DNA from: Gardnerella vaginalis 1500E
GTDB taxonomy: Bacteria; Actinomycetota; Actinomycetes; Actinomycetales; Bifidobacteriaceae
Reading direction: 5' to 3'
Assembly: GCF_000263595.1 (NCBI RefSeq)
Contig: NZ_ADES01000007.1
Location: 1 to 64,000, forward strand
Length of the DNA stretch: 64,000 nucleotides
Shown here: positions 32,961-44,016 of the stretch, piece after piece
How the letters are laid out: each line of letters starts with the position of its first letter
Position numbering within the stretch: position 1 is the stretch's first letter
Translations under genes and position numbers: made by a program
The notes under the pieces: generated by a model
Seen by the model: only the letters and a program-made list of their open reading frames with translations
Told to the model about the DNA's origin: nothing
The model's database searches: none

Positions 32961-33779
32961 TTAATTCGCAGATTTGCTTGGAACATCGTCAAAAGCATCA
33001 TGATGCTCGTCCAAAAAACCAATTCGATCCAAAGGCCACGTACGGAACACTGCAACGCCCTCGATTTTAGAAATCGGCACCAAACCATCGTCCCCATCGT
33101 TACGATGGTAGCGAGAATCTGCAGAATTAGCGCGATTATCTCCAAGAACAAAAACATGCCCAGCTTTAACCTTTACCTTAAAAGGAAAAGCACTTGGGTC
33201 AACACCAGGACGAATGTAAGCAGATTCGTGAACAGGAACACCGTTAACAGTAACAGGCTCCCCCGCTCCCTTACATTCCACAGTATCTCCAGGCAAACCA
33301 ATAAGACGCTTAATTAAATCCTTGCCAACTAAACCGTTAGAAGACTCTCCACTTAACCAATGAGCAGGATCTTCAAAAACTACAATATCTCCGCGATGCA
33401 AAGGAAATACGCTAGGAGTTAGCTTTGACGTAACAACGTAATCACCAATGTGAATAGTGTCAAGCATAGAGCCGGAAGGAATAGTGTACGCGCCGAGCAA
33501 AAACAGGCGAATAATTAACACTACAAAAACTGGAATACCAAACCAAACTAAAGCGTCTTTAAGAGAAAAATGGTCGCCGTTTTTTTGATTGCGAGCATGA
33601 GCAAAACGCTTGATATTTCGGCTCTCTTTACTATTTTTTTTGTTTTTTCTATTTTTCCAAAAACCACCAAAACCGGAAGGCTCATAACCTTCCGGCTCAG
33701 GTGGAACCGGTGAAGGATCTACGCCATGACCCGCTACAGCAACGATATGAGTATCGCTAATTTGCGTGCCATCAGACAT
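32961..33779 (-). CDS. lepB: Signal peptidase I
   Basis: 272 residues. It removes signal peptides from exported proteins at the membrane. After a cytoplasmic N-terminal region of about 90 residues and one membrane helix, the catalytic Ser is in TIPSGSMLDT and the Lys is in IKRLIGLPGD; GDNRANSADSRY is box E. AAGGAT precedes the ATG. The N-terminal region is rich in Asn/Lys/Arg and longer than in the minimal enzyme. Confidence 0.95.
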   Translation of the reverse strand: MSDGTQISDTHIVAVAGHGVDPSPVPPEPEGYEPSGFGGFWKNRKNKKNSKESRNIKRFAHARNQKNGDHFSLKDALVWFGIPVFVVLIIRLFLLGAYTIPSGSMLDTIHIGDYVVTSKLTPSVFPLHRGDIVVFEDPAHWLSGESSNGLVGKDLIKRLIGLPGDTVECKGAGEPVTVNGVPVHESAYIRPGVDPSAFPFKVKVKAGHVFVLGDNRANSADSRYHRNDGDDGLVPISKIEGVAVFRTWPLDRIGFLDEHHDAFDDVPSKSAN

Positions 33780-33806
33780 AATTTAATCCTTCACTTTAAG
33801 GTTGAT

Positions 33807-34175
33807 TTACTTAGCAGCGCTGTTGTCACGACGCTCGGCAATACGAGCAGCCTTGCCACGCAAAGCGCGCAAGTAGTAAAGCTTAGCGCGACGAACGCGA
33901 CCGCTACGAACCAGCTTAATCGAATCGATAGCTGGGGAATGAAGTGGGAAACGACGCTCAACACCAGTGCCGAAGCTCACCTTACGCACAACGAAAGTTT
34001 CACGCACGCCAGCACCCTTACGAGCAATCACCACGCCGGTGAAGGTCTGAATACGAGTGTTGTTACCTTCCTGAATCTTAACGTTAACGTCAACAGTGTC
34101 GCCAGGACGGAAAGCTGGGATTTCCTCAGCTGCCTTAAGATGCTTAGCATCAAATGCTTCTACAGCATTTACCAT
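33807..34175 (-). CDS. rplS: 50S ribosomal protein L19
   Basis: 122 residues from ATG 34175, with GGAGG six bases upstream; the longer frame to 34199 is not conserved L19. It carries [55 protein letters not shown]19 lies at the subunit interface. It heads the lepB-rnhB cluster and is separate from the rpsP-trmD operon at 52459-54795, although many bacteria have rplS after trmD. Confidence 0.96.
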
Positions 34176-34244
34176 AATATTCCTCCATCGCCGCCGCATA
34201 CCGACGCATAGTAAGCGTTAGCAGCAAATGCGCTACGCAATTTT

Positions 34245-34269
34245 CCCCAAAAAGTTCGCTTTTTAGGGG
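34245..34269. promoter_or_regulatory. Hairpin in the rplS leader
   Basis: CCCC-AAAAAG, loop TTCG, CTTTTT-A-GGGG forms a 10-bp stem with one bulged A. It lies about 70 bp upstream of the rplS start. It has no T-run on the rplS strand, so a leader structure for L19 control is possible; this is inference. Confidence 0.4.
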
Positions 34270-34432
34270 GCTTTCGATCCGCGCAATCTTAAATAAGAAG
34301 CGACTAGACCTAAAAATAAAAGAACTATGCGGCATCCTTTTATTGAAAGCATACAAGTATCAAATTTATGCACAATAATGGACATTATTAATGCGCAGTA
34401 TTGCACACTATTTCAAGCTATTTCGAGCTATT

Positions 34433-35947
34433 TCAGCGTGCAACACCGTCCAAAGGAGCAGTTTCAACAGTACGAGTCAACTCGTCATCGTCAGCATCGT
34501 AATCAAACAACTCACCATAACGACCCCAGCTAATCGCAATATCAAACTGTTGACGAGCAAGAGCATCCGTATGCTTACTGCGCAACAAATCCAAAATCAA
34601 CTCGCCGCGAAGCTTACCGTTGCGGTTACGACTCAAAGCCTGATCAATTGCGTGAACAAGAGGCGCATGCTCAATAGCCAGTCTTGCAAAAACTTGCTTA
34701 CTGTGCAAAATGTCGGCGTTATGCCATTCTTCACCAGCAGAAGTAATAGTAATATGGCCATTTTCTGCGGTAAGAAGATTAAGCATTGTTCCAGCATCAA
34801 CAAGCGGGAACAAATCGTCGATTTCAAACGACAAGTCTGCTGCCAAATCAGCCAAATCAATTCCGTCTGGATTTTCTGAAATAACGTCAAGCAAACCTGC
34901 CATACCTCCTGGGGTTGCGTTTGGAAGCAAACGAACCGACACAGGCTCTGCCTTCGCCTCTCCAGATTCAGCTTCATCTTCGTTTTGCTTATCTTCATCC
35001 TCATCGTCATGATGACGCTGAATAAGCATATCTGCAATTGCTGCAGCTTCGTTATCTTCAGCATCCTCAGTATCTGCAGCTTGAGCTTGATTCTGCAAAT
35101 CATCGGACTGTGAACTCTCCTGCTCAGAAGCACTTTCCGGAGCAGAACCGGTCAAAATAGCGTATAGATTATCAACCATCGCCTCAAATTCAGCACTGTG
35201 CTTATCTCGAGGGCGAGGCAAATCAACCTGAACGTCTGCAATTAAATGACCTGGATGCGATCCTAAAACAACCACACGGTCAGCCATTTGAACAGCTTCT
35301 TCAATATTGTGCGTAACAATAAGCACAGACTTAATATCTCGTTCCTCACTAGACCAAAGCTTAAGCACTTCCTGACGCAAGTTTTCTGCAGTAAGAACAT
35401 CGAGTGCGGAGAACGGCTCATCCATAAAAAGCGCATCCGGTCGTAATACCAACGCACGCGCAATACCTACGCGCTGACGCATACCGCCGGAAAGCTCCTT
35501 TGGGTAAGCTGTTTCAAAGCCATCCAAACCGATTGCGTCAATTGCAGCGAGCGCAAGTTCAGTGCGCTTTTCTTTGCTAACACCTCTAGCGCGCAAACCA
35601 AGCTCCACATTGTCTTGCACGGTAAGCCACGGCATAAGAGCAAAGGTTTGAAATACGATTGCAACCCCCGGGTTTGGGCCTGTAAGCTCGCGACCACGAT
35701 ACGTTACTGTACCTTCTGTTGGCTGCACAAGGCCTGCCATTGTGCGAAGGAAGGTTGATTTTCCAGCACCAGAACGTCCCAAAATTGCTACGATTTCACC
35801 TTCGCGAAGAGTGAAAGAAATATCGTGCAAAACATGCTGGGTTGTGCCGCTGTCGGAAGTGAAGCTTTGACTTATGTGCCTTGCGTCAATAATATCGCTT
35901 GTAATTGAGGATTGCGCTGCTTTTGCGTTGCTTTTCAAAGTATTCAT
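34433..35947 (-). CDS. ABC transporter ATPase with AAA-associated C-terminal domain
   Basis: 504 residues. The N-terminal NBD (about 20-270) is of the nitrate/sulfonate/taurine importer class: Walker A GRSGAGKS, Q-loop VFQTFALMPW, signature LSGGMRQR, Walker B ALFMDEPF, H-switch VTHN. An acidic Asp/Glu/Gln linker (about 275-345) leads to a C-terminal winged-helix-like region (about 355-490), as in the family of ATPases with an AAA-associated domain. It powers the fused permease encoded just upstream. A 9-bp repeat (AGCTATTTC type) abuts its stop codon. No substrate-binding protein is encoded nearby, so the substrate is unknown. Confidence 0.85.
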   Translation of the reverse strand: MNTLKSNAKAAQSSITSDIIDARHISQSFTSDSGTTQHVLHDISFTLREGEIVAILGRSGAGKSTFLRTMAGLVQPTEGTVTYRGRELTGPNPGVAIVFQTFALMPWLTVQDNVELGLRARGVSKEKRTELALAAIDAIGLDGFETAYPKELSGGMRQRVGIARALVLRPDALFMDEPFSALDVLTAENLRQEVLKLWSSEERDIKSVLIVTHNIEEAVQMADRVVVLGSHPGHLIADVQVDLPRPRDKHSAEFEAMVDNLYAILTGSAPESASEQESSQSDDLQNQAQAADTEDAEDNEAAAIADMLIQRHHDDEDEDKQNEDEAESGEAKAEPVSVRLLPNATPGGMAGLLDVISENPDGIDLADLAADLSFEIDDLFPLVDAGTMLNLLTAENGHITITSAGEEWHNADILHSKQVFARLAIEHAPLVHAIDQALSRNRNGKLRGELILDLLRSKHTDALARQQFDIAISWGRYGELFDYDADDDELTRTVETAPLDGVAR

Positions 35948-36025
35948 AATTTTGCCAATCTGTTTTATAAAATTTGTTATTTTAGCTGATTTAATTAGAT
36001 GATTTAATTAGTTGCTTTAATTCAG

Positions 36026-37774
36026 CTAGTTCAACACGTAGCGTTTTTCGGAAATACGTTGTAGAGGCGACCAGAATAGTCGATTACTTAAAACAACAAT
36101 TAAGCTCATAACAGTTACGCCAACCAGAGTGCGAGCGGTATCTCCCATAGTAGTTGCGTTAGTAATATAAGCACCCAAACCTGCAGTAGACATGCGATGC
36201 TTACCATATTCAACGATTTCCGACACAATCGAAGCGTTCCAAGCGCCGCCTGCAGCTGTAATACCGCCAGTGCACCAAGAACCGAAAATAGACGGCAAAA
36301 TAAGCGTCTTCCAACGTAAAACTCGAGCCAGCCTAAAGCTGCGTGTCATTTCACGCAAATCATCTGGAATAGCGCTAGCACCAGCAATAACATTGAAAAG
36401 AATGTACCATTGCGTGCCAAGAGCCATCAAAATAATACTTCCCCAACCCAAGTCAATGTTCCAAGCCATAAACAAGGCCATAGCAAATGGGAATATAAAG
36501 TTTGCTGGGAAGCTGGCAAGAATCTGCACAATAGGCTGCATAATTCTAGAAATCTTTGGATTCATGCCAATTAAAACACCAACTGGAACCCAAATAAGCG
36601 AGCTAACAAAAATCAAAACTGCAACTCGCACAAAAGTAATTCCACCAAGCATGCCTGCTGTAATAAACTCTTGCAACCCTGCAGTTGTATGCACAAAGTA
36701 AAGCATATGCGCCACACCTGCTGCAACAATAAAGAACATTAAAACGTTAAACGCCCAGTCGCCAAACTTGCGCTGCGAAGCTTTATGAGGCCACTTAGCT
36801 CCTGTGCAACCAAGCGGACGAGTAATCTTTTCTAACCACTCTCTAATTGGCAAGAAAAGTTTGCTAATAACCTCATCCGCATGAGAATGACGAATAAGCG
36901 TCAAAATAGCGCTGCGACGCTCATTGTCCGAAGCGCTCTGCGTAATACGGAAACGCTCAGCCCATGCAGTAAGTGGCTTCCACAAGAAGAAGTCAAGCGC
37001 CAAAACAACCACAACCATAGAAGCAATTGCCCACCAAATATTCCCGAGCTTATTATCTGCAGCAGATTGTGCAACAAAGCTACCGATGCCAGGAAGAGCA
37101 TAAGTGTGATTATTTACGGAAATCATTTCCGAAGCGGTAAGGAAGAACCATCCGCCACCAACAGACATCATGCAGTTCCAAAGCAGTGGAATCATTGCGT
37201 TTGGCATATCTAAAACCCAGAAGCGCTGCCAATGCGTAAGTTTAAGGCTACGAACCGCCTCATCCAACTCCTTAGGCTCGCTAAGAAGCGAACGGTGGAA
37301 GGAAAAAGTCATATTCCACGCTTGGCTTGTAAAAATAGCGAAAATCGAAGCCGCCTCAACACCGAGCATCGATCCAGGGAAAATCACCAACCAAATTGTA
37401 ACCGTCGCCGAAAGGAAGCCCAAAATTGGCACGGACTGCAAAATATCCAAAAGCGGAATAAGCACCTTGCCAAGCCTTCGACTTCGAGCTGCAAGAGAGC
37501 CATAAACAATAGTAAAAATAAGCGATGCCACTAGCGCAAGAAGCATACGAAATACTGAGCGCAAAGTGTAGTACGGAAGATTAATTAAGTCGGTAGACAC
37601 TTTAGAAGGAATACCGCTTGGACCAATCGGCTGATTTATGCGCTGAATAAGGAAAGCGGTTACGCCAAAAACAGCAATAATACCTACGCACACAATAATA
37701 TCGGACCAGAAGCGAGTGTTCTCGTCAACCTGTGCGCCTGCGCCTTCCTTGCGCGAAGTTGTGAATACGGTCAT
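36026..37774 (-). CDS. ABC transporter permease, two fused permease domains
   Basis: 582 residues with two BPD-type permease domains in one chain. Domain 1 (about 70-260) has an EAA loop in ELDEAVRSLKLTHWQRFWVLDMP. Domain 2 (about 340-570) has DDLREMTRSFRLARVLRWKTLILP. One chain would serve both halves of the importer. A GAGGA site precedes the ATG. It lies 188 bp downstream of the 48-codon gene at 37963-38109 with no clear terminator between, so all three genes may be one operon. Confidence 0.88.
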   Translation of the reverse strand: MTVFTTSRKEGAGAQVDENTRFWSDIIVCVGIIAVFGVTAFLIQRINQPIGPSGIPSKVSTDLINLPYYTLRSVFRMLLALVASLIFTIVYGSLAARSRRLGKVLIPLLDILQSVPILGFLSATVTIWLVIFPGSMLGVEAASIFAIFTSQAWNMTFSFHRSLLSEPKELDEAVRSLKLTHWQRFWVLDMPNAMIPLLWNCMMSVGGGWFFLTASEMISVNNHTYALPGIGSFVAQSAADNKLGNIWWAIASMVVVVLALDFFLWKPLTAWAERFRITQSASDNERRSAILTLIRHSHADEVISKLFLPIREWLEKITRPLGCTGAKWPHKASQRKFGDWAFNVLMFFIVAAGVAHMLYFVHTTAGLQEFITAGMLGGITFVRVAVLIFVSSLIWVPVGVLIGMNPKISRIMQPIVQILASFPANFIFPFAMALFMAWNIDLGWGSIILMALGTQWYILFNVIAGASAIPDDLREMTRSFRLARVLRWKTLILPSIFGSWCTGGITAAGGAWNASIVSEIVEYGKHRMSTAGLGAYITNATTMGDTARTLVGVTVMSLIVVLSNRLFWSPLQRISEKRYVLN

Positions 37775-37962
37775 AACAAAGTCCTCTAATAGGAACTAAA
37801 GGTTTATTTGCCTTTACTTATATTTTATTGAATCTTTTTCAGATTTATTTTTAGATTGATTTATGTAGCCGTATCACCATTGATTGCTTTTTAGGCTCAA
37901 GAATTGCAGCTTACTTTTTATTTTCGCAAGTCTAAAGTTAAGTTTTGCAGATTTCGTAAGTT

Positions 37963-38109
37963 TTATTTTTGCAATCTTTGCAACCTAAATGCGGTGATTG
38001 CCGGCTTCATATATTCAGGAGGAACATCTGAACTACTACTGCCAATAGTGTCAGAACCCTCACTCGTAGTGCGAGTACTAGAATTATGACTGTTACTGTC
38101 ATGTTTCAC
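37963..38109 (-). CDS. 48-residue small protein of unknown function, strongly expressed signals
   Basis: GTG start at 38109, stop TAA at 37963-37965. AAGGAGGTGATTT is an almost ideal ribosome binding site and the promoter 38138-38166 is consensus, so the frame is very probably translated. The N-terminal two thirds is rich in Ser, Thr and Asn (KHDSNSHNSSTRTTSEG) and the C-terminal part is basic and amphipathic (YMKPAITAFRLQRLQK). No cysteine, no signal peptide, no membrane helix. It could be a small regulator or partner of the ABC transporter encoded downstream, or a leader peptide. I do not recognise a family. Confidence 0.7.
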   Translation of the reverse strand: MKHDSNSHNSSTRTTSEGSDTIGSSSSDVPPEYMKPAITAFRLQRLQK

Positions 38110-38134
38110 GGCAAATCACCTCCTTAATGCCGTG
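38107..38134 (-). promoter_or_regulatory. Leader hairpin holding the start codon and ribosome binding site
   Basis: On the minus strand CACGGCA (38134-38128) pairs exactly with TGCCGTG (38113-38107). The GTG start codon is inside the stem and AAGGAGG is in the loop. The 5' arm is at or next to the expected transcription start, so nearly the whole untranslated leader is this hairpin. Confidence 0.65.
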
Positions 38135-38137
38135 CCA

Positions 38138-38166
38138 ATTATAAATAACGATTAAACCTGTGTCAA
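38138..38166 (-). promoter_or_regulatory. Consensus sigma-70-type promoter of the small gene
   Basis: TTGACA (38161-38166) and TATAAT (38138-38143) on the minus strand, 17 bp apart: a full match to the housekeeping consensus in all twelve positions. It drives the 48-codon gene and possibly the ABC transporter operon. Confidence 0.9.
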
Positions 38167-38202
38167 GGCACGCTGCACACAGAGGAATTTATGCAAAGCT
38201 AT

Positions 38203-38889
38203 TTATTCTGTAATAAACAAAGCTTGCAATTCAGGCAACAAAGCACGCAAAGCGTGGCCGCGGTGAGAAATACTATTCTTCTCTTCCTGAGTAAGCTCAG
38301 CGCTAGTTAAACCTTCCATTTGAACGCCGTTACGAATAGGCTGCTCGTCTGGAACAAAAAGCGGATCGTAGCCAAAACCGTTAGTTCCGCGCTCTTCTCG
38401 AAGAAGATGACCAATCATCTCCCCCATTCTAACCGTTTCAAAACCGTGAGTGTGCAGCATAACACTGCCTTCAGGAACTTCACTACAATCATCTGGAATA
38501 GCAAGAGCAGCCGCACAACGAAAACGCGCTGTTAAGAACCGATCCGGAATATCCGAAAGTTGCTGAAGAAGAAGAGCATTATTCGCTTTATCGTCACCAT
38601 GAACTCCGCTCCAACGAGCAGATAAAATTCCAGGAGCGGCACCCAAAATATCGACAATAATGCCTGAATCGTCCGCAATAGCAGGGTAACCAGTTCTTGA
38701 AGCAACATCGCGAGCCTTAAGCAACGCGTTCTGCTCAAAAGTAACTCCGGTTTCCACAGGATCTGGCAAACCAAGAGAACCCGCAGTAATAAGTTCAAAC
38801 CTGTCTGCTAACTGATTTAACTGTTCAGCTAAAATACGCTTAATTTCAACGAGTTTTCCCTCATTATGTGTTGCCACAACAAGTTTCAC
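38203..38889 (-). CDS. rdgB: Non-canonical purine NTP pyrophosphatase (RdgB/HAM1)
   Basis: 228 residues. It hydrolyses dITP, ITP and XTP to monophosphates, keeping damaged purines out of nucleic acids. VVATHNEGKLVEIKRIL opens the fold; IADDSGI, FGYDPLFVP and SHRGHALRAL are the family motifs. It starts 24 bp after rph in an ABC-F, rph, rdgB unit. Confidence 0.95.
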   Translation of the reverse strand: MKLVVATHNEGKLVEIKRILAEQLNQLADRFELITAGSLGLPDPVETGVTFEQNALLKARDVASRTGYPAIADDSGIIVDILGAAPGILSARWSGVHGDDKANNALLLQQLSDIPDRFLTARFRCAAALAIPDDCSEVPEGSVMLHTHGFETVRMGEMIGHLLREERGTNGFGYDPLFVPDEQPIRNGVQMEGLTSAELTQEEKNSISHRGHALRALLPELQALFITE

Positions 38890-38913
38890 GCCCGCTCTCC
38901 TTCAATCTGTTTA

Positions 38914-39675
38914 CTATTTTGCTAAAGCAGCTTTTTGCGCTTTCTGCAGCTCACGATTACCTTTTGTTGCTAAATCAAGTAAAGTATTTAATTCGTCGCG
39001 ATTAAACGGACGATGCTCAGCAGTTCCCTGAATTTCAATAAACGTGCCGGAACCAGTCATAGCAACGTTCATATCTGTCATAGCCTGACTGTCTTCAACA
39101 TAAGGCAAATCAAGCATAGGAGTTCCGTTAATAACGCCTACGGAAACCGCCGAAACAGCATCTTTAAGAACGCTTGCAGCGGAACGAATATGACCATTCT
39201 TTTCCGCCCAATTAAGAGCATCTACCAATGCTACATAAGCTCCAGTTACGGAAGCCGTGCGAGTTCCACCATCTGCCTGCAAAACATCGCAATCGATTTG
39301 AATCTGGCACTCACCCATGGCTTTCATATCGACAACTCCACGCAAGCAGCGACCAATAAGACGGCTGATTTCATGCGTGCGACCGCCAATTTTTCCGCGC
39401 ACAGATTCTCGATCGGTACGCTCAGCAGTAGCTCGAGGAAGCATAGAATATTCGGCAGTTACCCACCCTAATCCGGAATCTCTGCGCCAACGAGGAACAC
39501 CAACAGTAAAAGTTGCAGTGCACATAACGCGCGTATTCCCGCACTCAATAAGCACAGAGCCTTCAGGAACGTCAGTAAATTTACGTGTAATTCGCACAGG
39601 GCGAAGCTCGTCAACGTCACGACCGTCTACGCGAATTGGTTTTACAGATTCCAGCATATCCTTGATTTGAGCCAT
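38914..39675 (-). CDS. rph: Ribonuclease PH
   Basis: 253 residues. A phosphorolytic 3'-5' exonuclease that trims tRNA 3' ends. Motifs: [67 protein letters not shown]. It is followed by rdgB, a very common pairing. Confidence 0.96.
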
Positions 39676-39711
39676 AACTCACAAATTTAGCACGTGGCTG
39701 TTATCTTCTAA

Positions 39712-41772
39712 TCACTGCAGCTGCTCAGAAAGTTCCATCCACTCTTCTTCAAGATCACTAGTTTCTTGCGCATTCTGCTGCAATTCTTCGTTAAGAGCTT
39801 GAAGACCTACGAAGTCACTCGGATCGTGAGAAGCCATTTGAGACTCAATATTTGATTTTTGATCTTCAAGTTTTGCAAGTTTTCGCTCAATTGCTGCCAC
39901 GCGTCTTGTGGCATCGTGATAGGCTTTGCCGGTAAGTTTGGGCTCAATTACTGTACTTTCTGAACTTTCTTTAGTTGTAGAATTTGCAGCACTCGAAGCA
40001 TTCGCAGTACTTGAAGCGCCAACAGTACCAGTAGTACCACTACTATTTTCGTGATCGCGTTGCAATTTTTCTACAATTTGCAAATACTCATCTACGCCAC
40101 CCGGAAGATGACGAATTTTGCCATCAATCAGCGCAAACTGCTGATCAGTTACGCGCTCAAGCAAGTAGCGATCGTGCGAAACAACAATAAGCGTGCCAGG
40201 CCAAGTATCAAGCAAATCTTCCATAACAGCCAGCATGTCGGTATCTAAATCATTACCAGGCTCGTCCATAATCAGCACATTTGGCTCATCTAGCAAAATC
40301 AGCAGTAGCTGCATACGCCTTTTTTGACCGCCCGAAAGATCCGCAATCGGAGTCATAAGCTGCTCAGGCTTAAAACCAAGACGCTCCATAAGCTGACCGG
40401 GAGTAACTTCTTTCCCGTCAATAATGTAGCTTGGTTTATAGCGGCTTAAAACTTCCTTAACCTTATATTTTCCAAGCTTTTCAAGCTCTTCAAGGCGCTG
40501 CGAAAGCACAGCAAATTTTACAGTTTTGCCAATGTTTACGCGCCCCATAGTAGGTTTTAGCGAGCCGTCAATAATGCTTAATAGCGTTGATTTTCCGGCA
40601 CCGTTTGCGCCAACAATTCCAAAACGATCTCCAGGGCCGATTAGCCATGTTGCATCGTCGAGAATCATGCGGCCGGTAATAGTTTTTCGTTCTGCTGCAG
40701 CAGTTTCCGGATTTTCTTCAGAAAGATTTTCTTGATTTTCGTCGACTGCAATCGTAACGCTTCCTACGTGAGTTGGTTGCGCAAAAGCAGATTCTACAAT
40801 GTCAACTTTATTTGATTTTTCTGAAGTAGCAGCACTTTCTGCAATATCTGGATCAATATTTTTTAGCTGATTAGCATCGTCAAAAATTTGCGTAACATCA
40901 ATCAAATCAACAACTTGCTTGCCAAGACGCGAAGTTGCCATTTTCTTCAATTCCAAAGTATCTCGCATTGGAGGCACGTCTGCAATAAGCTCGCGAGCCT
41001 GCTTTACGTGGAACTTCTGCTTAGTAGAACGCGCACGAGCACCGCGTGAAAGCCATGCCAACTCTTTTCTGGCCAAATTTCTGCGACGCTCCTCGCGCAC
41101 ATCAGCCTGACGCTCCCTTTCAACTCGCTGAAGCATGTACGCGCTGTAGCCGCCTTCAAACGGATCTATTACGCCGTCGTGAACTTCCCACATCGAAGTG
41201 CAAACCTCATCTAAGAACCAGCGATCGTGAGTCACAATCAAAAGCGCACCCTGGCCGTCTTGCCAACGGTGGAGCAGGTGCTCAGCAAGCCAGTGAATTG
41301 TCACAACATCCAAATGGTTCGTAGGCTCATCTAAAGCCAAAATATCCCAGTCATGAAGAAGCAATCTTGCCAAATCAGCTCGCCTGCGCTGACCGCCAGA
41401 AAGCGTACCAACTTTTGCTTCCAAATTGATTCCGCCAAGAAGAGCTTCTACGATTTCGCGCGAGCGCGGGTCTGCAGCCCACTCGTAATCTTCGCGATTT
41501 TCCAAAGCAGCCTTACGCACAGTTGCGTTGTCATCTAAAGGATCGCGCTGGTCGAGCATGCCAAAAGTAAGCCCTCCGCGCTTAGTTACGCGCCCGGAAT
41601 CAGGCTGCATTTTGCCGGCAAGCATGCGAAGCAGCGTTGACTTTCCGTCGCCATTTCGACCAACAATACCGATTCTGTCGCCTTCAAAAACGCCTTGAGT
41701 TACGTCTGTAAAAATCGTTTTTGTAGCAAACTCTAGCGAAACTCGTTCTAATCCCAAATCATACGTAGGCAT
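39712..41772 (-). CDS. ABC-F family ATPase (Uup/EttA-like) with C-terminal coiled coil
   Basis: 686 residues from ATG 41772. Two NBDs without membrane segments: Walker A GRNGDGKST and GANGAGKST, signatures LSGGQRRR and LSGGQKRR, Walker B ILALDEPTNHLD and LIMDEPGNDLD. ABC-F proteins bind the ribosomal E site and aid translation, or give antibiotic resistance. The linker between NBDs is extended, with a Ser/Glu-rich insertion (about 315-370). The C-terminus (about 625-686) is a coiled coil of the Uup type, preceded by a Ser/Thr/Ala-rich stretch. The exact subfamily is not certain. Confidence 0.88.
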   Translation of the reverse strand: MPTYDLGLERVSLEFATKTIFTDVTQGVFEGDRIGIVGRNGDGKSTLLRMLAGKMQPDSGRVTKRGGLTFGMLDQRDPLDDNATVRKAALENREDYEWAADPRSREIVEALLGGINLEAKVGTLSGGQRRRADLARLLLHDWDILALDEPTNHLDVVTIHWLAEHLLHRWQDGQGALLIVTHDRWFLDEVCTSMWEVHDGVIDPFEGGYSAYMLQRVERERQADVREERRRNLARKELAWLSRGARARSTKQKFHVKQARELIADVPPMRDTLELKKMATSRLGKQVVDLIDVTQIFDDANQLKNIDPDIAESAATSEKSNKVDIVESAFAQPTHVGSVTIAVDENQENLSEENPETAAAERKTITGRMILDDATWLIGPGDRFGIVGANGAGKSTLLSIIDGSLKPTMGRVNIGKTVKFAVLSQRLEELEKLGKYKVKEVLSRYKPSYIIDGKEVTPGQLMERLGFKPEQLMTPIADLSGGQKRRMQLLLILLDEPNVLIMDEPGNDLDTDMLAVMEDLLDTWPGTLIVVSHDRYLLERVTDQQFALIDGKIRHLPGGVDEYLQIVEKLQRDHENSSGTTGTVGASSTANASSAANSTTKESSESTVIEPKLTGKAYHDATRRVAAIERKLAKLEDQKSNIESQMASHDPSDFVGLQALNEELQQNAQETSDLEEEWMELSEQLQ

Positions 41773-41853
41773 AATGCACAAATATAGCTGCAGACTTCTA
41801 CGAACAGATTTAATCTAACTTAATCTAAAAGCGTGCGTGTTGGCAATGTGGAC

Positions 41854-41859
41854 TATAAT
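41854..41859 (+). promoter_or_regulatory. -10 box of leaderless rnc transcript
   Basis: TATAAT ends nine bases before the rnc ATG, placing the transcript start within about three bases of the start codon. No Shine-Dalgarno sequence is present. No good -35 was found. Confidence 0.6.
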
Positions 41860-41868
41860 AGTGCTGTT

Positions 41869-42663
41869 ATGAAGACTCAAAATAATCAAGAAAATCAGCA
41901 CGATACGAAGAGTGCGCATAAAGCAAGTGGAGTTTTAAGATTAGACGACGGCGAGGCCCGCGCTGGGGATCCAACTCAGGAGCTTTTAGACGCTTTAGGC
42001 ACAACTATTTCGCCGGATCTTTTGGTAGAAGCGCTTACGCATCGCTCGTTTTCGCACGAGCATCCAGGTACGCGAAATTATGAGCGACTTGAGTTTTTGG
42101 GAGATGCTGTTTTAGAGCTCGTATCTACAGAAACGCTATTTTCTGCGCATCCAGACATGACTGAAGGTCAACTTGCGAAGATGCGAGCGAAAGCTGTGTC
42201 TGAATGGGCGCTTTCTGCTGTTGCGCGCGAAAAGCTGCATGTTGGACCATATATTCTGCTCGGCCGCGGCGAAATGGAGCAGGGCGGAAATAATAAAGAT
42301 TCGATTCTTTGCGATATTGTTGAGGCGCTTATTGGCGCAACTTTTGTTGAGCACGGTATTGATGAGGCGCGCGCTGTGGTACATCGTTTGATTGATGACA
42401 CTTTGGCGGAAGTTTTGACCGAAGGTCCAGCACTTGATTGGAAGACTTCACTTACGGTTAAGGCGCACGATATGGGATTGGAAGATCCGGAGTATCGTAT
42501 GGCTGTTTCTGGACCTGAATATGCTCCAGTTTTTGAGGCGCGAGCAGTTCTTGCACACAAGGACGGCGACGAAGTTCTTGGCGTTGGAAGCGGATCTAGC
42601 AAACGTAAAGCGCAACTTGCGGCTGCAGAAGTCGCTTGGCACGCGCTCGACGCGCGTAAGTAA
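41869..42663 (+). CDS. rnc: Ribonuclease III
   Basis: 264 residues. It cleaves double-stranded RNA in rRNA maturation and mRNA decay; in type II CRISPR systems it also matures crRNA-tracrRNA duplexes, relevant to the cas9 locus here. The signature ERLEFLGDAVLELV, the second acidic site (DIVEALIGATFVE) and a C-terminal dsRBD (about 185-262, ending GSGSSKRKAQLAAAEVAWHAL) are present. ATG 41869 was chosen from the -10 box just upstream; an upstream GTG frame start at 41833 would precede that box. Confidence 0.95.
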   Translation: MKTQNNQENQHDTKSAHKASGVLRLDDGEARAGDPTQELLDALGTTISPDLLVEALTHRSFSHEHPGTRNYERLEFLGDAVLELVSTETLFSAHPDMTEGQLAKMRAKAVSEWALSAVAREKLHVGPYILLGRGEMEQGGNNKDSILCDIVEALIGATFVEHGIDEARAVVHRLIDDTLAEVLTEGPALDWKTSLTVKAHDMGLEDPEYRMAVSGPEYAPVFEARAVLAHKDGDEVLGVGSGSSKRKAQLAAAEVAWHALDARK

Positions 42664-43028
42664 CTACGAACTTTACCTGATCTGCGAACTTTGTCATCGA
42701 TACTTCGAATACGATAAGCGACTATCAATCAAAGAACACTAGCATTATTGCTTTGCTATCGCTACACCGAAATGACTACCACACAACAAAAAAACACTAA
42801 TCATTTTCTGAGTAGTGAGGTTGGGTGTTGCTTGGTCGAGCAATACAAAAGCGGAGCGATAGCAATATCTTTTTGATAAATAACTATTTTTGAAAGAAAG
42901 TAACTAAAAAACTAAACTTAACTATGCAACCGCTAAGTCCAAATAAGGTATAAGAGCGTAGCGCTGCGAGACAAGCAACACCCAACCTCACAGCCATATA
43001 AACTAAAACAATACGAAAGAAAAAAGAA
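42664..43028. other. Intergenic region with a perfect 20-bp inverted repeat
   Basis: GTGAGGTTGGGTGTTGCTTG (42815-42834) has its exact reverse complement at 42972-42991, enclosing 137 bp. Inside and beside it are weaker pairs: TGCTATCGCT (near 42757) with AGCGATAGCA (near 42855), and GCGTAGCGCTGCG (near 42957). The region lies between the convergent rnc and rpmF genes. No open frame is supported. It could be a structured RNA or a miniature mobile element; neither is proved. The arms do not extend to a target-site duplication I can see. Confidence 0.6.
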
Positions 43029-43056
43029 AACCCTGCCACCCGTCGATGGCAGGGTT
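43029..43056. terminator. Bidirectional terminator between rnc region and rpmF
   Basis: AACCCTGCCA (43029-43038), loop of eight, TGGCAGGGTT (43047-43056). It is followed by T-runs on both strands and starts 14 bp past the rpmF stop. Confidence 0.88.
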
Positions 43057-43069
43057 TTTTCAATACAAC

Positions 43070-43264
43070 CTAGTTGTTGTGCGCCGAGCGAATAGCTTCG
43101 CGGTACACACGACCGCGGAAGGTTCCGCAGGATGGGCAAGCCATGTGTGGGAATGCCTCAGAACCGCAGTTCGGGCAAGTCACAGTCTGCACGGCAGACG
43201 CCTTCCAATTAGCGCGACGCGAATGCGTATTAGCACGCGAGGTCTTGTATTTAGGCAGTGCCAT
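43070..43264 (-). CDS. rpmF: 50S ribosomal protein L32, zinc-binding form
   Basis: 64 residues. [20 protein letters not shown] opens the protein; CPNC and CPSC give four zinc-ligand cysteines. It is preceded by yceD, its usual partner, with a 122-bp gap that contains a truncated family B repeat. Confidence 0.96.
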
Positions 43265-43359
43265 AGTTTTTCCTCTATTTCGTTCAAACGATTGAGCTTA
43301 AGCGTTCTGTATATTACAGCACGCACCGTACAATTGCGTAATTTGCTCACAATCTAGCG

Positions 43360-43385
43360 CGACATAAACTGCTCACGCGAGTAAA
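43360..43385. repeat. Truncated 52-bp hairpin repeat, family B
   Basis: CGACATAAACTGCTCACGCGAG matches the first half of the family B unit and stops at the 3' end of yceD (stop at 43387). Confidence 0.6.
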
Positions 43386-43386
43386 A

Positions 43387-44016
43387 TTAATGCCGTTTTT
43401 CAGCATTCTCAAGTTGCGCTTTTAATCCTTCCAAAGCTGCGAATCGAATATCCGTAACATCGTGGTGATGCTCCGGATGCTCGTTAAGATTTTCGCCACA
43501 CTGCGGGCAAAGTCCGCGGCAATCTGGCTCGCACAACGGCTGCAAAGGAAGCTCGCTTACCATAGTGTCGCGAATAAGCGCCTCAATATCAGCAAAATCG
43601 CCGCCGCCAACCAGCGGATACACGTTTCCCGACTCGTCATTATCTTCCCAAATTTGAGATTCGTCTTCGTCAACATCTTTGCGGTTCTTGCGATTATCCG
43701 CATGTTGCGAGCGCTCATCTACATAAGGGAAGAAAACGCACACATCTACTTTCCAATCACGACGAAGCGGCATCAAGCAGCGCGTACACTCTGCGTGCAC
43801 TGGAGCTGTAATACTTCCCTGGAACATTAGGCCGTCAACAACAGCATCAAAGTCACCATCAACATGCACATCGCTGCCTGGCTTTACACCAATAACGTAA
43901 TCTCCAATGCCTTCCGGAGCTGGAAATACGCGGTGTAACGCCATGCTGCTACCAGCGCGCGCAGCCATTTGCGCTACTGGAATAGCCCATGGTGATTGGG
44001 AAGGATGCGAAGTCAT
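43387..44016 (-). CDS. yceD: YceD family protein (DUF177)
   Basis: 209 residues. Conserved cysteine pairs CTRC and, near the end, CEPDCRGLCPQCG, as in the DUF177/YceD family, whose members in plants and bacteria act in 23S rRNA maturation or accumulation. It has an acidic Asp/Glu-rich insertion around residues 108-130. Its ATG directly follows the stop of the upstream coiled-coil gene (TAAATG), and AAAGGA precedes it. rpmF lies downstream, the usual order. Confidence 0.88.
   Translation of the reverse strand: MTSHPSQSPWAIPVAQMAARAGSSMALHRVFPAPEGIGDYVIGVKPGSDVHVDGDFDAVVDGLMFQGSITAPVHAECTRCLMPLRRDWKVDVCVFFPYVDERSQHADNRKNRKDVDEDESQIWEDNDESGNVYPLVGGGDFADIEALIRDTMVSELPLQPLCEPDCRGLCPQCGENLNEHPEHHHDVTDIRFAALEGLKAQLENAEKRH

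What the first reader, a model, noticed from the sequence alone, without database searches (positions are those of the whole stretch)
37963..38166. Unannotated 48-codon gene with consensus promoter and start-codon hairpin
Every expression signal is near ideal: TTGACA-17-TATAAT, AAGGAGGTGAT, GTG. The gene would be strongly transcribed. Its leader folds into a 7-bp stem that includes the start codon and puts the ribosome site in the loop, a possible translational switch. It stands ahead of an ABC importer operon of unknown substrate. The protein is Ser/Thr/Asn-rich with a basic C-terminal helix and matches no family I know.
Basis: partly seen in the sequence, partly recalled or inferred. Interest (0 to 1): 0.72.

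Follow-up and report, generated by a model that had tools for sequence, protein, structure and literature searches.

The report
Magnesium-regulon leader peptide before transporter
The unannotated small gene looks like a conserved leader peptide at the head of an ABC-transporter operon that, in sister species, carries a magnesium-sensing RNA switch; since these bacteria seem to lack the usual magnesium importers, it points to an unexplored way of sensing and perhaps importing magnesium.

Summary
In detail: a consensus promoter, the only exact AAGGAGGTGAT in 64 kb, and a 48-codon GTG ORF. The start-codon hairpin is real but not conserved. The ORF is: 39 of 41 full-length copies of the downstream permease in the genus have such a uORF. 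In the 12 Gardnerella-type genomes the frame is kept to a DVPPEY core, then lost, while an RNA element (B) that pairs with the uORF's ribosome site is kept in any frame. An M-box Mg2+ riboswitch occurs in 17 of 112 genomes of the genus, always at this permease; six of the 12, the window's included, lack it but keep the uORF. None of the 12 has CorA, Nramp, or MgtE or MgtA over cut-off. Similar short uORFs follow 26 of 28 M-boxes elsewhere in the class, apparently including mycobacteria (Rv1805A type). Best reading: a cis-acting leader ORF of an Mg2+ regulon, working like mgtL/mgtQ. Ribosome abortion and the A/B/C/D switch are inferred; folding predicts the switch in four species, weakly in a fifth, not in the window's group.

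The parts
38138..38166 (-). Consensus sigma-70-type promoter TTGACA-17-TATAAT
   Evidence: 12 of 12 consensus bases. M-box-bearing Gardnerella-type sisters have the same kind of promoter directly ahead of the aptamer.
38107..38134 (-).
   Evidence: -9.8 kcal/mol, z -3.0 in the window; not better than shuffles in L022, L023, L025, L032. Junction origin is inference from the sequences.
38115..38125 (-). Shine-Dalgarno AAGGAGGTGAT of the leader ORF
   Evidence: single exact match in 64 kb.
38109..38120 (-). Element A (GGTGATTTGCCG), overlaps SD and first base of the start codon
   Evidence: pairs with element B in 98.5% of cells over 12 genomes.
37963..38109 (-). Leader ORF (uORF), 48 codons, GTG start
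   Evidence: frame conserved in 12 Gardnerella-type genomes to PPEY; dN<dS in 21 of 21 pairs among 7 representatives.
38011..38028 (-). Codons 28-33, DVPPEY core: last peptide segment conserved in all 12; the frame is lost after it
37993..38005 (-). Element B (GCCGGCAATCACC), anti-SD inside the 3' part of the uORF, conserved as RNA in different reading frames
37868..37880 (-). Element C (ATGGTGATACGGC), conserved in an otherwise divergent spacer; can pair with B or with the permease start
   Evidence: B:C has no two-sided changes.
37772..37787 (-). Element D: permease SD (AGAGG) and ATG
   Evidence: C:D helix proposed by RNAalifold, but near zero in the window's own ensemble.
36026..37774 (-). 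Permease gene, two BPD_transp_1 stretches (duplicated permease), 582 aa
34433..35947 (-). ABC ATPase with C-terminal AAA_assoc_C domain, 504 aa; I saw no binding-protein gene beside it among the ORFs listed for 33000-44000, but did not search for one

Best explanation
The 48-codon ORF is a leader ORF (uORF) that acts in cis at the head of an ABC-transporter operon belonging to the Mg2+ (M-box) regulon. Shown by comparison: the uORF and its exceptional ribosome site are conserved; the peptide is under selection up to DVPPEY; an RNA element right after it (B) is conserved as RNA and pairs with the uORF's own SD (A); the same permease carries an M-box in 17 of 112 genomes of the genus; half of the Gardnerella-type genomes lack the aptamer but keep the uORF. 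Inferred mechanism: ribosomes load at the very strong SD and pause or abort on the acidic/proline core, more so when Mg2+ is low; how far A is covered by such ribosomes decides whether B pairs with A or with a downstream element C, and so whether C can mask the permease start (compare 1:2 + 3:4 versus 2:3 in Salmonella mgtQ). No intrinsic terminator was found between uORF and permease in the window, so the output would be translational or Rho-dependent. Where the aptamer exists, the M-box probably acts on uORF translation; in the window the uORF, if it still senses anything, senses alone. The transporter is then the likely Mg2+ importer.
For: uORF in 39 of 41 full-length permease loci of the genus, acidic residue within residues 2-5 in 39 of 39 against 13 of 40 long ATG ORFs of the window; the same search criteria met on the other strand in 0 of 41 (38 of 41 on the right strand, L041 accepted by eye). 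Gardnerella-type: dN<dS in 21 of 21 pairs of 7 representatives, indels in threes up to PPEY, then frame loss; bifidobacteria with the HHLC/HHLS-type peptide: dN<dS in 68 of 69 non-identical pairs. A:B: 98.5% of 132 cells paired, slid versions at most 64.3%, one pair with a change on both sides in two genomes; RNAalifold finds A:B and C:D unprompted; element B recurs in two unrelated uORFs, L059 and L060 (by eye). M-box. No CorA match in the 12, no MgtE over cut-off in 112, no MgtA over cut-off and no Nramp in the 12. Across the class, 26 of 28 M-boxes are followed by a short SD-strong uORF, against 1, 0 and 0 of 28 in three control stretches. No terminator in the spacer. Precedents: PMC8092293, PMC12810186, PMC11282234 (parts read, see full report).
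Against: No expression, translation or Mg2+ response was measured. The window genome has no M-box match. Whole-leader consensus folding is only modestly better than column shuffles (z -1.8, 11 of 200). A:B covariation is thin: shuffles reached the paired percentage and the covariation score in 9 of 500, the number of pairs with two-sided change in 164 of 500, the number of pair types in 500 of 500, and one of the 11 pairs is unpaired in 2 of 12 genomes as aligned. B:C has no two-sided change, a covariation score no higher than shuffles, and a version slid by -3 is 70.8% paired against 93.8%. Ensemble calculation: covering A gives B:C and loss of C:D clearly in L027-L030, weakly in L031, not in L032; in the window's group B:C already dominates the free leader in five of six; mean accessibility of the permease start does not change over 12 (0.363 free, 0.353 with A covered), although it rises from 0.18 to 0.36 in the window itself. 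A ribosome modelled at PPEY alone favours A:B, not B:C, in all 12. Single-leader duplex tests give p 0.065 for the window, 0.005-0.085 for the other Gardnerella-type leaders that the script placed correctly, and p <= 0.05 outside them only in L046 and L089. DVPPEY lies at codons 28-33 in the window and up to residue 38 in relatives, at or past the roughly 30-residue limit reported for EttA-dependent acidic-residue effects in E. coli (passages of PMC11282234).
Confidence: 0.6

Rival explanations
1. The product is a stand-alone small protein acting in trans, for example a metal-binding or transporter-accessory peptide (many of these peptides hold His, Cys, Asp).
For: Conserved N-terminal peptide and purifying selection; His/Cys/Asp-rich segments such as MADDLPSSINDLHHLC; D'Halluin et al. 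also consider such a role for Rv1805A (PMC12810186, discussion read).
Against: The C-terminal third changes frame and length between sister species; peptides of different bifidobacterial groups share little beyond acidic residues, Pro and Ser.
Confidence: 0.15
2. A relic: after loss of the M-box the uORF in the window's lineage is a constitutive leftover that no longer regulates.
For: No M-box in the genome; strong promoter directly ahead of the SD; in the window's ensemble B:C dominates (0.76) with or without a ribosome on A.
Against: uORF frame, DVPPEY, A, B and C are kept in all six aptamer-less Gardnerella-type genomes and the uORF in 23 of 25 aptamer-less permease loci of the genus.
Confidence: 0.15
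3. RNA-only element: the strong SD is a ribosome-loading or structure-forming site and the peptide sequence is incidental.
For: Extremely strong SD that pairs with B; B conserved irrespective of frame.
Against: dN<dS in 21 of 21 and 68 of 69 pairs, indels in threes up to PPEY.
Confidence: 0.08
4. Amino-acid attenuator reading Ser-tRNA charging: 10 of 48 codons are Ser, with a run of four before DVPP.
For: Many relatives are Ser-rich; Ser-Ser lies next to the acidic/proline core in many peptides.
Against: Link to the M-box; no intrinsic terminator found in the spacer; the early acidic residue is the feature present in all 39.
Confidence: 0.05

Closest known systems
Mycobacterial M-box leader with uORF2 (Rv1805A, pe20 locus; PMC12810186)
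   Same: Short conserved ORF with a strong SD downstream of an M-box aptamer (about 90 nt after it in the unnamed loci that look of this type); SD, anti-SD and a further site compete; no canonical intrinsic terminator; metal-transport regulon. M-box-bearing Gardnerella and bifidobacteria have the same order of parts.
   Different: The window has no aptamer; its anti-SD lies inside the conserved uORF itself, whereas the paper places it in a poorly conserved uORF1; downstream genes are an ABC transporter, not pe/ppe; the peptide sequence differs. The paper calls the peptide specific for mycobacteria.
Salmonella mgtQ (PMC8092293)
   Same: Strong SD, acidic residues, mutually exclusive helices 1:2 + 3:4 versus 2:3, of which 3:4 masks the start of an Mg2+ transporter gene.
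   Different: mgtQ has 8 amino acids, lies between two genes of an operon and in a proteobacterium; here 48 codons, 5' leader, actinobacterium; no sequence relation is claimed.
mgtL leader peptide of mgtA (passages of PMC11282234)
   Same: Leader peptide with acidic and proline residues ahead of an Mg2+ transporter; ribosome dissociation at low Mg2+.
   Different: EPDP within the first five residues in mgtL; in the window only Asp4 is early and DVPPE is at 28-32. Many other bifidobacterial peptides (MADDLP, MSDELP, MADDPP) come closer. In mgtL the output is Rho-dependent termination.
B. breve UCC2003 ykoK/M-box ahead of Bbr_0406-07 (PMC5746004)
   Same: Same placement: M-box in the 5' UTR of an ABC transporter whose permease is COG4986.
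   Different: That paper's riboswitch section does not mention a uORF, and concerns a species with the aptamer. That Bbr_0407 is this permease family is inferred from the description; I did not compare the sequences.

Membership tests
M-box (ykoK) Mg2+ riboswitch, RF00380 | Aptamer at or above the gathering score in the leader | tested here: not met
   Window: none in 64 kb or in the whole genome. Met in 6 of 12 Gardnerella-type genomes and 16 of 41 full permease loci of the genus.
M-box-associated uORF of the Rv1805A kind | Short ORF with near-consensus SD downstream of an M-box aptamer | tested here: not met
   Not met in the window because the aptamer is missing; met in sister species (SD 64-148 nt after the aptamer in the 10 of 18 loci where the script's pattern found it) and in 26 of 28 M-box loci elsewhere in the class.
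M-box-associated uORF of the Rv1805A kind | Conserved proline at position 7 near the N-terminus | tested here: not met
   Window's first Pro is residue 30. Several loci have MSxxDSP with Pro7; many bifidobacterial peptides have Pro6.
Intrinsic-ribosome-destabilisation leader peptides (mgtL, mgtQ) | Acidic residues early in the peptide, often with proline | tested here: inconclusive
   Asp4 and DVPPEY at 28-33 in the window; acidic residue in residues 2-5 in 39 of 39, Pro in 2-8 in 24 of 27 non-Gardnerella and 0 of 12 Gardnerella-type.
Intrinsic-ribosome-destabilisation leader peptides (mgtL, mgtQ) | Mutually exclusive leader structures that gate the transporter gene | tested here: inconclusive
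   A:B supported; switch behaviour predicted in L027-L030, weakly in L031, not in L032 or the window's group.
Intrinsic-ribosome-destabilisation leader peptides (mgtL, mgtQ) | Mg2+-dependent ribosome drop-off | not testable with these tools
   Needs toeprinting or reporter assays.
ABC importer of the NitT/TauT type (downstream genes) | BPD_transp_1 permease and ABC ATPase (here with AAA_assoc_C domain) | tested here: met
   PF00528 two stretches, PF00005, PF09821. The substrate-specific NCBIfam models shown are below their cut-offs (6 of 6 for the permease, 25 shown of 190 for the ATPase).

The most novel reading that the evidence does not exclude
Gardnerella, which lacks CorA, MgtE, Nramp and any MgtA-grade ATPase by these searches, imports Mg2+ through an ABC transporter, which would be a new kind of Mg2+ importer as far as I know (recalled); its expression is gated by a class-wide kind of acidic/proline leader peptide that reads Mg2+ through the ribosome itself, and several species have dispensed with the M-box aptamer because the peptide alone suffices.
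Probability: 0.22. Interest if true: 0.85.

Novelty: new variant of a known kind. Interest (0 to 1): 0.62.

Why it matters
It gives a testable substrate (Mg2+ or another divalent cation) for an orphan ABC transporter in bacteria with no other recognised Mg2+ importer by these searches, and it suggests that the conserved uORF reported next to a mycobacterial M-box, called specific for mycobacteria, belongs to a wider actinobacterial arrangement. Species that kept the uORF but lack the aptamer are natural experiments for what the leader peptide does by itself.

Tried and rejected
Start-codon hairpin as a conserved switch: rejected (for five leaders, for the 5' arms of 12). Protein-family look-up of the 48-aa product: nothing. 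Generalising A:B to all bifidobacteria: 7 of 45 leaders had p <= 0.05 (L022, L029-L032, and outside Gardnerella L046 and L089); the script picked a wrong upstream start in at least L025, L027, L028, L044, L059 and L092, and the other non-Gardnerella leaders are no better than shuffles, so the pairing is claimed for Gardnerella-type leaders only (plus L059 and L060 by eye). Whole-leader consensus fold: only z -1.8. Ensemble test of the switch: mixed, no net change over 12, and a ribosome modelled at PPEY alone does not give B:C. Intrinsic terminator between uORF and permease: none found in the window. B. indicum-type loci L064 and L073 do not fit: M-box but no uORF of this kind seen, and L064 has a terminator-like hairpin with a T run after the aptamer. 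L088 and L092 have neither M-box nor uORF. G110 was left out of the 41: its permease is a fragment. The papers library was searched ten times; no paper in the lists shown describes this uORF, but searches showed only 12 of 734, 12 of 3,079 and 10 of 31 papers, and most subscription journals are not held. Odds changed on checking: the specific switch went from 0.4 to 0.35, because one search supports it clearly in four genomes, not five.

Full report
Observation. All described signals are present: promoter, SD, GTG ORF of 48 codons, hairpin, ABC permease and ATPase downstream. Upstream on the same strand lies a gene at 38203-38889 that I take for rdgB (recalled from its translation, not searched). 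The leader from just after the -10 box to the permease start (38139-37775) folds at -89.7 kcal/mol against -69.2 +/- 4.65 in 100 shuffles (z -4.4, none as low).

Conservation. A protein search of 101 genomes of the genus found the product at its own place in 12 genomes of 1.5-1.8 Mb, E from 1.6e-27 to 0.04 (loci L001-L012); other hits (two of them also below 0.05) look like chance. The permease search named the nearest relatives: Gardnerella greenwoodii (99% permease identity), G. swidsinskii, G. piotii, G. vaginalis. I call the 12 Gardnerella-type. The whole genus as held has 112 genomes, 42 with the permease, 41 of them full length (in G028 it is split into two matches of one frame). I read the DNA ahead of all 41 (loci L021-L050 and L084-L094): 39 have a short ORF behind a near-consensus SD (L041 has one mismatch and was accepted by eye); L088 and L092 have none. 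The same criteria are met on the other strand in 0 of 41 and on the right strand in 38 of 41.

Coding or not. In the 12, the frame is kept from GTG to DVPPEY with indels only in threes; after that a one-base shift and tails of different length break the frame. Among 7 representatives dN is below dS in 21 of 21 pairs; between the window and L024 the differences at codon positions 1, 2, 3 are 1, 1, 8. Between the two Gardnerella groups the constraint is weaker (for example L026 against L027, dN 0.25, dS 0.28). The 15 bifidobacterial peptides of the HHLC/HHLS type give dN < dS in 68 of 69 non-identical pairs. An acidic residue sits in residues 2-5 in 39 of 39 uORFs, a proline in residues 2-8 in 24 of 27 non-Gardnerella and 0 of 12 Gardnerella-type ones; for 40 long ATG ORFs of the window the numbers are 13 and 6 (start codons there are mechanical, and related uORFs are not independent).

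RNA elements. Immediately after DVPPEY, element B (GCCGGCAATCACC) is kept in different frames. It pairs with A (SD and start of the uORF): 98.5% of 132 cells, one pair with a two-sided change (C-G to U-A in L028 and L031), sliding controls at most 64.3%. Shuffles reach the paired percentage and the covariation score in 9 of 500, but the count of two-sided pairs in 164 of 500 and the pair types in 500 of 500. Two other Actinomycetota, L059 and L060, have unrelated uORFs in the same position, yet carry GGCAATCACC against GGTGATTGCC, and GGCAGTCACC against GGTGACCGGCC (by eye; the second with mismatches in its outer part but with a C-G where the others have U-A). Element C (GGTGATA...) is conserved in a spacer that otherwise hardly aligns; it can pair with B (93.8% of cells, no two-sided change, slid by -3 still 70.8%) or with the permease start (found by RNAalifold together with A:B; consensus folding of 353 columns is z -1.8, 11 of 200 shuffles as low).

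Ensemble calculations. In L027-L031 the free leader forms A:B (0.66-0.91) and C:D (0.51-0.75); covering A moves B to C (0.56-0.77) and removes C:D (0.15 or less) in L027-L030, only weakly in L031 (0.14; C:D 0.55); L032 does not react. In the window's group of six, B:C already dominates in five (0.61-0.76), A:B in L023, and C:D is near zero. Accessibility of the permease start rises in 6 (the window: 0.18 to 0.36), falls in 5 and is unchanged in 1 of the 12, with no mean change. A ribosome modelled at PPEY with A left free favours A:B in all 12. So A:B is supported, the full switch only in part of the group, and coverage of A matters in the model, not stalling alone.

M-box. Rfam's Mg2+ riboswitch is at the head of the same operon in 11 of 30 loci L021-L050, 5 of 11 loci L084-L094 and 8 of 15 further loci L059-L073 (several of these repeat the same genomes), and in none of 5 distant permease loci. 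A genome-wide scan finds exactly one M-box in 17 of 112 genomes, each at this permease (positions held; filters there lose weak matches; G110 has only a permease fragment). The window genome has none. All 16 full loci with M-box have the uORF, and 23 of 25 without. On a permease tree of 39 rows (duplicates and short stretches left out) the aptamer label needs 6 changes, at least 5 forced by well-supported branches. Four aptamer-less species from three places of that tree (L025; L026; L028 and L031) share the junction TATAATTAGCACGAACTTAAGGAGG, so recombination of leader alleles is as likely as repeated loss (sequences; inference). In aptamer-bearing loci the uORF's SD lies 64-148 nt after the aptamer in the 10 of 18 loci where the script's pattern found it.

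Other Mg2+ importers. CorA is found in 98 of 112 genomes (97 over cut-off) and in none of the 12 Gardnerella-type genomes; two other genomes without it are 74% and 82% complete. MgtE is over cut-off in 0 of 112, with 15 weak matches, none in the 12. In the 12, P-type ATPases match the MgtA model in stretches of at most 214 bits (two stretches of one frame sum to about 400) against a cut-off of 610.75, and Nramp is absent (two further genomes were included for comparison and one of these has Nramp). One of these P-type ATPases could still carry Mg2+, and the loss of CorA is probably one event in one lineage. All the same, this ABC transporter is the best candidate importer; M-boxes can also answer to other divalent cations (PMC12810186, discussion).

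Beyond the genus. Of 246 genomes drawn from the class, 15 have M-boxes, 28 in all. After 26 of 28 there is a short ORF (19-47 codons) with SD score 7-9, starting 60-155 nt from the aptamer. Controls with the same criteria: same stretch on the other strand 1 of 28, 360 nt well upstream 0 of 28, 360 nt further downstream 0 of 28. Peptides: MSSSDSP, MSPGDSPYP and the like in one family (proline 7, as reported for Rv1805A, and in L126 and L127 a PE-like ORF follows), TDAEPCHS or TDSEPSHS within the ORFs of another, MSSGSSP, MSPGRSP and MSPGHSP in two more. L118 and L123 show none. A strict D-x-P in the first eight residues is in 16 of 26 by my count. Homology of these peptides to the window's is not shown: the likeness is of position, SD strength and composition.

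Literature. PMC12810186: abstract, results and discussion read; its M-box controls a conserved uORF through SD1/anti-SD/SD2 pairing plus Rho, and it states that the peptide is specific for mycobacteria. PMC8092293: outline, first of three parts of the results, and discussion read; mgtQ. PMC11282234: passages only; EttA, MgtL, intrinsic ribosome destabilisation and the 30-residue limit. PMC5746004: passages and the riboswitch section read; M-box ahead of Bbr_0406-07, COG4986. PMC11611912: passages only, nothing used. Other papers were seen as search listings only.

Verdict. A leader ORF of an Mg2+-linked operon (confidence about 0.9 for a translated, conserved uORF; about 0.75 for the Mg2+ link; about 0.35 for the specific ribosome-abortion switch). 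It works like mgtL/mgtQ and the mycobacterial M-box uORF, but in the window it fails two membership features (aptamer, early proline), so it is filed as a variant, not a member.

Noticed in passing
L059 2501-4246 and L060 614-2359: A 72%-identical permease with a uORF leader sits in records titled Atopobium sp. Marseille-P4126 and Arcanobacterium sp. S3PF19; on the tree it falls with Gardnerella at 100/100 support (both are long branches, flagged as unsure), while the 16S of these genomes is only 80% and 85% identical to the window genome's. Suggests horizontal exchange.
   Followed up: partly
window 39712-41781 (minus strand): An ABC-F protein lies three genes upstream on the same strand (NCBIfam ribosomal-protection-like ABC-F 355 bits against a cut-off of 380, EttA model 334 against 599; of the 25 models shown only a CcmA model is nominally over its cut-off). 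EttA is reported to relieve pausing on acidic residues, as in MgtL.
   Followed up: no
L025 1156-1192 and 1272-1460: AT-rich tandem repeats (for example AAATTACGCAAAG, 5.9 copies) lie in the leader around and downstream of the uORF end, and spacer length differs strongly between sisters.
   Followed up: no
L064 2209-2443: M-box followed by a terminator-like hairpin with T run, then the permease, without the uORF: a different expression platform in the same family.
   Followed up: no
L039 1286-1378, L040 1213-1304: Inverted repeat of 21 nt (86% complementary) with 50-51 nt between the arms in the leader of two species without M-box; not found at this threshold in L033.
   Followed up: no
G110:C1:214938-215705: M-box directly abutting a permease fragment (residues 375-581 only), as if the first part of the gene had been deleted.
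   Followed up: no
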